Shown piece after piece: positions 42,317-44,402 of a stretch of DNA of 64,000 bases. The first letter of the stretch is position 1; every line of letters begins with the position of its first letter. Under the pieces are notes generated by a model. The model saw only the letters and a list, made by a program, of their open reading frames with translations, was not told the DNA's origin and searched no databases. The stretch comes from Nitrospirota bacterium (GTDB lineage Bacteria; Nitrospirota; JACRHL01), in the NCBI GenBank assembly GCA_029881725.1, contig JAOUMB010000009.1, positions 1 through 64,000 on the forward strand, in the 5' to 3' direction. Made by a program: the position numbers and the translations under genes.

Positions 42317-42473
42317 GGTCGTTCAGGGCTCACCGGAAATGATTGAATAGGAGGCATAACGCCACCCCTCTCTCATCGCCTGAAACCGCCCGCGACTTGA
42401 GCGGCGGGGTCGACAAATCCTCTACGAACCGGCACCATATCCGGTGTTATTCACCCCCGATTTCCCAACCGCC

Positions 42474-42959
42474 ATGCTTGACGCCATCCAACGTTTTTTC
42501 AAAAACCACATGCAGGACGAAGCCCGGGCGATCACCGACCGCGCCGCCACCCCACATGCCCTGAGGGTGGCCACCGCCGCAGTCCTGGTGGAAGCCATGC
42601 GCGCCGACAGCCAGGTGTCGGCGGAGGAGCGGGAGGCCCTGCAGGGGGCCTTGGGAGCCAAGTTCGAGTTGCCGCCGGATGAAGTGAGGGAACTGATCGC
42701 CCTGGCTGAACAGGAGGCGGCGGTGGCTACCTCCCTGTACCAGTTCACCCACCTGATCGATAAGGGGTTCAGCCATGAGCAAAAGACCCGCGTGGTGGAA
42801 TTGCTGTGGCAAGTGGCCTTCGCCGACGGTCATCTGGAAGCGCGCGAGGAGGCCGTCGTGCGCCGCGTGGCCGACCTGATCCACGTGCCGCACAAGACCT
42901 ACGTGGACGCCAAGATTCGTGCGCGGGCAGAGGCCCCGGATCCGGGGAAGTCCGAATAA
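42474..42959 (+). CDS. TerB-like helical protein
   Basis: 161 residues from the ATG at 42474. All-helical, with two copies of the TerB pattern: ATAAVLVEAMRADSQVSAEE and LLWQVAFADGHLEAREEAVV, both with the Ala-Asp-(Ser/Gly) turn that binds metal. The family is linked to tellurite resistance and envelope stress, but most members have no known function. It is divergent from the LuxR-type regulator. Confidence 0.75.
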   Translation: MLDAIQRFFKNHMQDEARAITDRAATPHALRVATAAVLVEAMRADSQVSAEEREALQGALGAKFELPPDEVRELIALAEQEAAVATSLYQFTHLIDKGFSHEQKTRVVELLWQVAFADGHLEAREEAVVRRVADLIHVPHKTYVDAKIRARAEAPDPGKSE

Positions 42960-42987: not shown

Positions 42988-43134
42988 CTAAGGAAGCGCC
43001 TCGGCGGCAATTCGCGGCAGGGCGTTCAGCACCGAAAGCCAGGGCGGCGGGGCGTAAGCCACTGCGCCGATCATCAGCACCGTGGCCATGAACGACAATG
43101 TGAACGCGGCCAGATTGACCGCGTTCCGGTACAT
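42988..43134 (-). CDS. Tiny membrane peptide B (48 residues)
   Basis: 48 residues from ATG at 43134. One long hydrophobic helix (LAAFTLSFMATVLMIGAVAY) followed by a Pro-Pro-Pro-Trp turn and an amphipathic end. The start lies 10 bases after the stop of peptide A, with only a weak ribosome site, so it is likely translated by coupling. I recognise no family. Because it lies under the same sigma-54 promoter and c-di-GMP riboswitch as peptide A, the pair is probably regulated together. Confidence 0.6.
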   Translation of the reverse strand: MYRNAVNLAAFTLSFMATVLMIGAVAYAPPPWLSVLNALPRIAAEALP

Positions 43135-43144
43135 GATGTCGGGA

Positions 43145-43282
43145 TTATCCCGCAAGCGCGAGCGTGTAGATATCGGCACCGATCATGCCCACCACGGTGA
43201 TCGCGGTGAAAATGAATATCAGCCGTGCCTTGGCCAGCAGATCCAGGGTGTAGTTGTAGGTGACGACGGACAACGATCGCAT
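43145..43282 (-). CDS. Tiny membrane peptide A (45 residues) under a c-di-GMP riboswitch
   Basis: 45 residues from the ATG at 43282, preceded by a strong AGGAG at the right distance. N-terminal part polar with Tyr residues, then one membrane helix (LIFIFTAITVVGMIGADIYT) and a short tail. It is the first gene after a c-di-GMP-I aptamer. Its size is like CydX-type or other regulatory mini-proteins that bind a larger membrane complex, but I see no family match. Expression should follow c-di-GMP level and sigma-54 activity. Confidence 0.68.
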   Translation of the reverse strand: MRSLSVVTYNYTLDLLAKARLIFIFTAITVVGMIGADIYTLALAG

Positions 43283-43284
43283 AC

Positions 43285-43332
43285 GGAAACTCCTTCAAGC
43301 CATCACACGCACACAGCGTTCCATGGGTTTCC
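43285..43332 (-). promoter_or_regulatory. Likely riboswitch expression platform at the ribosome site
   Basis: In the mRNA, GGAAAC just after the aptamer (plus coordinates 43327-43332) can pair with GTTTCC (43285-43290), which covers the spacer and the last base of the AGGAG ribosome site (43290-43294). This suggests control of translation rather than termination; no terminator is seen. Confidence 0.5.
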
Positions 43333-43334
43333 TG

Positions 43335-43410
43335 GCAGGCCGGCCGCCTCGGTGAGGCCCGAACCTTTGCGTCCCATCCTCACGGATGGTTTGCCCCGGG
43401 CAGGGTGCCC
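43335..43410 (-). ncRNA. Cyclic-di-GMP-I (GEMM) riboswitch aptamer
   Basis: Read on the minus strand the conserved parts occur in order: GGGGCAAACC (43388-43397), a stem CCATCC/GGATGG closed by a GTGA tetraloop (43374-43389), GGGACGCAAAG (43365-43375), and the second stem beginning CGGGCCTC with GCCTC/GAGGC (43346-43358). These match the GEMM-I consensus, including the GNRA loop and the GGGACGCAAAG junction. The closing P1 stem could not be fixed by eye. It lies between a sigma-54 promoter and the first small peptide gene. Confidence 0.88.
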
Positions 43411-43440: not shown

Positions 43441-43456
43441 AGCAAGGCTTGTGCCA
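43441..43456 (-). promoter_or_regulatory. Sigma-54 promoter
   Basis: Minus strand TGGCACAAGCCTTGCT, an exact fit to the TGGCAC-N5-TTGCT consensus with the -24 GG and -12 GC correctly spaced. A start about 12 bases downstream would place the c-di-GMP aptamer near the 5' end of the transcript. An AT-rich zone upstream (43465-43505) could hold activator sites. Confidence 0.8.
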
Positions 43457-43561: not shown

Positions 43562-44296
43562 TTATTTGCCCATTGTAACGCCACCGCCTGCCCCTTCAAG
43601 AATCTCCGTGGCGATTGCGCGTGCCGCAGCCACCCGGTCGGGGGCGTCGCGGATGGGACGGCCAATCACCAGATAATCAGCTCCGGCGGCCAGCGCGGCG
43701 ACCGGTGTGGCCACCCGGCTCTGGTCACCCACGGCGGCGCCGGCCGGGCGAATGCCGGGGGTAACAATGATAAAATCCGGCCCCGACTCCATCCGTACCC
43801 GGCGCGCTTCATTACCGGAACAGACCACCCCGGCACACCCGGCTTCGCGGGCCATGCGCGCACGACGCGCCACCAGCCGTTCCGGGTCCAGCAGGGATTT
43901 TTTCAATCCCAGGTCCGCCAGACTGTCCGGCCCCAGACTAGTCAGGGCGGTCACCGCCAGAATATCGACGCCAGGTGCCAGCCTGGAAACCGGACGATGC
44001 ATCCCGATCAGTGCATCCGCATGCACCGTAATCAAGCGCGGACCCAGCGCCGCCACGGAACGCAGCGCCGCTGCCACGGTGGCTGGAATATCGTGCAATT
44101 TCAGGTCGAGGAACACCTCCTGCCCCATCTCCCGCACCATTCTCACCACCGGGGGACCTTCCCGCCGGAACAGTTCCAACCCCACCTTGAACATGCCGAC
44201 CGCGCCCGCCAGTTCCTTCACGTGAAGCCGGGCCGTCTCCAGATCAGGGACGTCGAGTGCATAGATAATGCGCTTTTCAGGAGTCAGTGTAGTCAT
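43562..44296 (-). CDS. pyrF: Orotidine 5'-phosphate decarboxylase
   Basis: 244 residues (an ATG six bases upstream is equally possible). The core motifs are [33 protein letters not shown] (Asp-Lys-x-x-Asp catalytic set) and IIVTPGIRP. It makes UMP in pyrimidine synthesis. It is divergent from copA. Confidence 0.93.
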
Positions 44297-44402
44297 GATC
44301 ATGGGAGTGTCTCCTGGGGGGAAGTTACAGTTTAACGCTCCGCTCCCGCCCCAACAATACCTTGAGCCGCCCCTGGGACCCTACCGGGGTTACAATTATC
44401 AG

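What the first reader, a model, noticed from the sequence alone, without database searches (positions are those of the whole stretch)
42988..43282. Two unannotated membrane peptides (45 and 48 residues) as the riboswitch output
Both frames are short, one hydrophobic helix each, with a strong AGGAG for the first and a 10-base gap to the second. They would escape common gene callers. A c-di-GMP aptamer in front of tiny membrane proteins suggests a new class of c-di-GMP-controlled regulatory peptides.
Basis: partly seen in the sequence, partly recalled or inferred. Interest (0 to 1): 0.85.

Follow-up and report, generated by a model that had tools for sequence, protein, structure and literature searches.

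The report
Riboswitch-controlled pair of tiny membrane proteins
In an obscure lineage of Nitrospirota-like bacteria, the only detected riboswitch of its type, predicted to sense the signal c-di-GMP, sits behind a special promoter and controls nothing but two conserved, previously undescribed membrane proteins of about 45 residues, whose job is unknown.

Summary
On the minus strand a c-di-GMP-I riboswitch (43330-43404) is followed by a 45-aa and a 48-aa ORF, each with one hydrophobic helix; of 181 ORFs of 40-65 aa in the window, only two are this hydrophobic. The same riboswitch plus ORF pair occurs, in a partly conserved neighbourhood, in two other genera of the class (67%/54% and 38%/39% identity; three of four genomes held). 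Between the two closest genomes both frames show purifying selection (pN/pS about 0.5). The next gene (TerB-like) is convergent in all three, so the pair is the whole operon. I add a sigma-54 promoter 36, 37 and 36 nt before the aptamer in all three, and a canonical G20/A47/C92 ligand pocket. Neither peptide has a detectable relative in 393 other genomes of the phylum, Pfam, NCBIfam, PHROGs or the PDB. In about 88 other such riboswitch loci of the phylum the only comparably small membrane outputs are Flp pilins, which these are not. Function is unproven; most likely the pair are co-made subunits or modulators of an inner-membrane complex. 'Regulatory peptides' is only a guess. Switch direction is undetermined.

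The parts
43441..43456 (-). sigma-54 (RpoN) -24/-12 promoter, TGGCACAAGCCTTGCT
   Evidence: Only exact TGGCACN5TTGCW in the window, 0.12 expected; same kind of site 36/37/36 nt before the aptamer in window/G003/G001; 2, 4 and 8 of 2000 shuffles as good; one RpoN gene per genome
43330..43404 (-). c-di-GMP-I riboswitch aptamer (best Rfam model RF03167); ligand contacts G20 = 43395, A47 = 43368, C92 = 43335 by alignment
   Evidence: cmscan 59.5 bits, E 1.7e-11; alignments; only match in the genome
43283..43329 (-). expression platform with Shine-Dalgarno AAGGAG (43295-43290); no intrinsic terminator found
   Evidence: sequence; folds; terminator scan
43145..43282 (-). microprotein 1, 45 aa, one transmembrane helix, conserved KARLI and D-x-Y
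   Evidence: same length in three genera; pN/pS; AF2 single helix 2-44, pLDDT 87.6
42988..43134 (-). microprotein 2, 48 aa, transmembrane helix, PPWL kink, second helix
   Evidence: conserved in three genera; pN/pS; AF2 helices 2-27 and 31-46, pLDDT 87.4
42444..42959 (+). convergent TerB-domain gene that bounds the operon (context, not part)
   Evidence: Pfam TerB 6e-34; same convergent place in G003 and G001

Best explanation
This is a genuine two-gene operon for two single-span inner-membrane microproteins. Transcription starts at a sigma-54 promoter, so it needs an activator ATPase and its signal (promoter shown by conservation; activator inferred). The transcript opens with a c-di-GMP-I aptamer that should bind c-di-GMP through G20/A47/C92 and change access of ribosomes to the first Shine-Dalgarno (ligand from conserved contacts; translational control inferred from the lack of a terminator; ON or OFF not determined). 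The second gene is probably translated by coupling to the first, so both proteins are made together. They most likely sit side by side, N-terminus in the cytoplasm, and act as small subunits or modulators of a larger inner-membrane complex used when the cell changes between free and surface life (inference).
For: Riboswitch. Pair conserved with it in three genera. Purifying selection between the two closest genomes. Sigma-54 site at fixed distance and rpoN in every genome. 10-15 GGDEF domains in each of the three genomes with the pair. Convergent TerB gene leaves no other gene in the unit. Helices. No terminator-like site between aptamer and the first gene.
Against: Only three sequences per peptide, and the synonymous signal is lost against G001 (column shuffles 167 and 140 of 1000). 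Folding did not give one consistent switching mechanism: forcing the aptamer lowers Shine-Dalgarno exposure in G003, changes little in the window, and in G001 it stays paired either way. Nothing tests membrane insertion, partners or function.
Confidence: 0.62

Rival explanations
1. The pair are structural subunits of a surface appendage, as divergent counterparts of the tandem Flp pilins that other riboswitches of this type control in the phylum.
For: Four other loci have the riboswitch followed by two small single-helix proteins, both Flp pilins (L072, L082, L107, L116): the same layout.
Against: Neither peptide shows the E-Y processing motif seen in those pilins (GATAIEYGLLAALIA); no Pfam or NCBIfam match. 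The conserved basic KAR just before the helix of peptide 1 does not look like a pilin N-terminus.
Confidence: 0.12
2. The peptides are membrane-active toxins or lysis peptides of the small hydrophobic type.
For: Size, one helix each, layered control of expression.
Against: Single copy and syntenic in three genera, two co-encoded genes; no match in PHROGs, peptide 1 none in plasmids, peptide 2 none in phages.
Confidence: 0.08
3. The translated frames are incidental; the conserved thing is the RNA leader, an untranslated regulator.
For: Riboswitch and promoter are conserved at least as strongly as the frames; beyond the closest pair the codon signal is saturated.
Against: Identical 45-codon length, aligned start and stop, hydrophobic character, KARLI and PPWL motifs in three genera, and synonymous bias in the closest pair.
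Confidence: 0.06
4. The two frames are the split remains of one larger two-helix membrane protein that is being lost.
For: Adjacent frames, each with one main helix, gap of 3 to 10 nt in two genomes.
Against: Three diverged genera all keep two separate frames with their own stop and start; no longer relative found.
Confidence: 0.05

Closest known systems
c-di-GMP-I (GEMM-I) riboswitches, Rfam RF01051/RF03167
   Same: Aptamer sequence, structure model and the contacts G20, A47, C92 (contacts named in PMC4744006)
   Different: Output is two uncharacterised microproteins and nothing else; preceded by a sigma-54 promoter at fixed distance
c-di-GMP-I riboswitch followed by tandem Flp pilins (L072, L082, L107, L116)
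   Same: Riboswitch of the same model, then two small single-helix proteins
   Different: No pilin motif and no sequence relation
Small single-span accessory proteins of membrane complexes, such as CydX, KdpF, AcrZ, MgtS (from own knowledge)
   Same: Size, single helix, no catalytic residues
   Different: No partner gene next to them, no sequence match found, control by c-di-GMP riboswitch plus sigma-54

Membership tests
c-di-GMP-I riboswitch | Match to the covariance model above the curated score | tested here: met
   59.5 bits against 59 in the window; G001 and G003 score 53.1 and 51.9, below the cut-off but E about 1e-11
c-di-GMP-I riboswitch | Ligand contacts G20, A47, C92 | tested here: met
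   Present in all three by alignment; numbering from PMC4744006 and PMC3764141
c-di-GMP-I riboswitch | Binds c-di-GMP and changes expression | not testable with these tools
   Needs in-line probing and reporter fusions
c-di-GMP-I-GGC variant (RF03167) | G at position 47, as in the model consensus (my reading of the name as G20/G47/C92) | tested here: not met
   Consensus reads CGCGAAG, all three sequences CGCAAAG, so the pocket is that of ordinary c-di-GMP-I
Sigma-54 promoter | GG and GC ten bases apart in a TGGCAC-N5-TTGC context | tested here: met
   exact in window and G003, two mismatches to TGGCACG-N4-TTGCW in G001
Flp pilin | Processing site and E-Y motif of the kind GATAIEYGLLAALIA | tested here: not met
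   Absent in all six sequences; no Pfam match for the window's two
Known small membrane proteins with solved structure | Sequence relation to a PDB chain | tested here: not met
   Profile of peptide 2: none; profile of peptide 1: only repeat-protein and GPCR matches with no stretch passing on its own
Type I toxin | Antisense RNA antitoxin | not tested
   No antitoxin RNA family was reported there by Rfam, but no dedicated search was made

The most novel reading that the evidence does not exclude
The pair is the first case of microproteins that are the sole, dedicated output of a c-di-GMP riboswitch: a direct route from the second messenger to an inner-membrane machine through two tiny transmembrane regulators, gated a second time by sigma-54.
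Probability: 0.33. Interest if true: 0.8.

Novelty: new variant of a known kind. Interest (0 to 1): 0.58.

Why it matters
c-di-GMP riboswitches are usually read through the large genes they control. A conserved riboswitch whose whole operon is two proteins of about 45 residues is easily missed by gene callers and shows where to look for c-di-GMP effectors too small to be annotated. It is also the only detected riboswitch of its model in each of three genomes with 10-15 GGDEF domains, so in this lineage the RNA branch of c-di-GMP control found by this model comes down to these two proteins. The fixed sigma-54 site gives a testable two-input design.

Tried and rejected
Wider family: profiles of both peptides against 396 genomes of the phylum gave only chance-level hits outside the class; the best were checked and lie in unrelated long proteins or off-frame. 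PDB hits of the peptide 1 profile are designed repeat proteins and not meaningful. Flagellar link: two other exact sigma-54 sites of the genome precede a FliO-like gene and a MinD/ParA-type ATPase plus sigma factor, but FlhA is not detected in G000 and G003, which have the pair, and is present in G002, which lacks it, so no correlation. Switch direction: folds with and without the aptamer forced were inconsistent. No paper in the library holds both 'c-di-GMP riboswitch' and 'small membrane protein'.

Full report
What is there. On the minus strand, in order of transcription: a -24/-12 site at 43456-43441, a c-di-GMP-I aptamer at 43404-43330, AAGGAG at 43295-43290, an ORF of 45 codons at 43282-43145, a gap of 10 bases, and an ORF of 48 codons at 43134-42988. 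The next gene, a TerB-domain protein at 42444-42959, is on the other strand, so nothing else can be the output of this unit. Upstream lies pyrF (43562-44302).

Is it more than chance? A short ORF alone proves nothing: one search lists 101 of them in 10 kb. But of 181 ORFs of 40-65 aa in the window only two have a 19-residue stretch with mean hydropathy of 2.0 or more; by their own values (2.04 and 2.11) these are the two in question. More telling is conservation. The class to which the genome belongs has four genomes in the collection. Three of them (own, G001, G003; three genera) hold the riboswitch, and in all three the same pair follows it. The fourth, G002 (540 contigs, 91% complete), shows no riboswitch, no pair and no TerB neighbour. 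Peptide 1 has 45 residues in all three, with invariant M1 R2 L16 K18 A19 R20 L21 I22 F25 D37 Y39 G45. Peptide 2 shares R3 A5 A10 F11 T18 A24 and PPWL. Window against G003 shows pN/pS 0.49 and 0.55, values reached by 9 and 3 of 1000 column shuffles, while the other frames give higher ratios; against G001 the comparison is near saturation and gives no signal. The neighbourhood (TerB convergent, P-type ATPase on the other side) is shared by G003 and G001, so inheritance looks vertical.

Regulation. The aptamer scores best with Rfam's c-di-GMP-I-GGC model, yet the position at which that model's consensus has G (Vc2 position 47) is A in all three, as in ordinary c-di-GMP-I aptamers; G20 and C92 are also kept (contacts from PMC4744006 and PMC3764141). 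So c-di-GMP is the expected ligand. New here is the sigma-54 promoter: the exact TGGCACN5TTGCW occurs once in the window (0.12 expected) and six times in the genome, against one match of the reversed control pattern. A site of this kind lies 36, 37 and 36 nt before the aptamer in window, G003 and G001 (TGGCACAAGCCTTGCT, TGGCACACCCCTTGCT, GGGTACGGTTGTTGCA), with 2, 4 and 8 of 2000 shuffles as good. Of 23 other riboswitch loci of the phylum checked in the same way none reached a score of 10 of 12. All four genomes have one rpoN; the three with the pair have 10-15 GGDEF domains. No terminator-like site lies between aptamer and first ORF in the window, so control is probably translational. In G003 the aptamer strand GGGGCAAAC is complementary to GUUUGCCCC just before the start codon, and in G001 the Shine-Dalgarno is held in a CUCCG-UAAC-CGGAG hairpin, but calculated exposure with and without the aptamer does not agree between species. 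I leave ON or OFF open.

The proteins. AlphaFold2 on three-row alignments gives one helix (2-44) for peptide 1 and two (2-27, 31-46) for peptide 2, mean pLDDT about 87. Net positive charge precedes the hydrophobic stretch in every sequence, which predicts N-in orientation. The two are not related to each other. There is no match in Pfam, PHROGs or, above chance, NCBIfam, no meaningful one in the PDB, none for peptide 1 in plasmids or peptide 2 in phages. Outside the class no homologue was found in the phylum sample.

Is it a general theme? RF03167-type riboswitches are found in 170 of 396 genomes of the phylum. First ORFs behind about 88 of them look by eye like secreted, fibronectin-like, cytochrome, flagellar (FlgC-like), CBS or PilZ-like proteins, and Flp pilins. 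The only comparably small membrane outputs are Flp pilins, in four loci as a tandem pair (L072, L082, L107, L116). That arrangement is an analogue, not a relative. This survey used a simple ORF picker and can miss small genes.

Verdict. 'New class of regulatory peptides' goes beyond the evidence: it is one family in one small class, function unknown. I read it as a new variant of a known kind, a c-di-GMP-I riboswitch operon with sigma-54 promoter whose entire output is a microprotein pair.

Noticed in passing
G000, C103:69050 (outside the window; L058, L136) and C3:56174 (L053): Exact sigma-54 sites precede a MinD/ParA-type ATPase plus sigma factor and a FliO-like gene, yet no FlhA was detected in G000 or G003 (98-99% complete) while G001 and G002 have it. 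Flagellar genes may be partly lost in these two genera, or missing from the assemblies.
   Followed up: partly
L072, L082, L107, L116: In other genomes of the phylum the riboswitch is followed by two tandem Flp-type pilin genes of about 57 and 61-67 aa.
   Followed up: no
RF03167 matches across the phylum (e.g. L012-L014, L026, L027): Many carry a coupled change, GCCAAAC with GACGGAAAG in place of GGCAAAC with GACGCAAAG, a covariation next to the ligand pocket. The family name G-G-C, read as G47, does not fit these sequences, which have A there.
   Followed up: no
43140-43152 (-): An inverted repeat CGGGA-TAA-TCCCG spans the stop codon of the first peptide; it could affect coupling to the second.
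   Followed up: no
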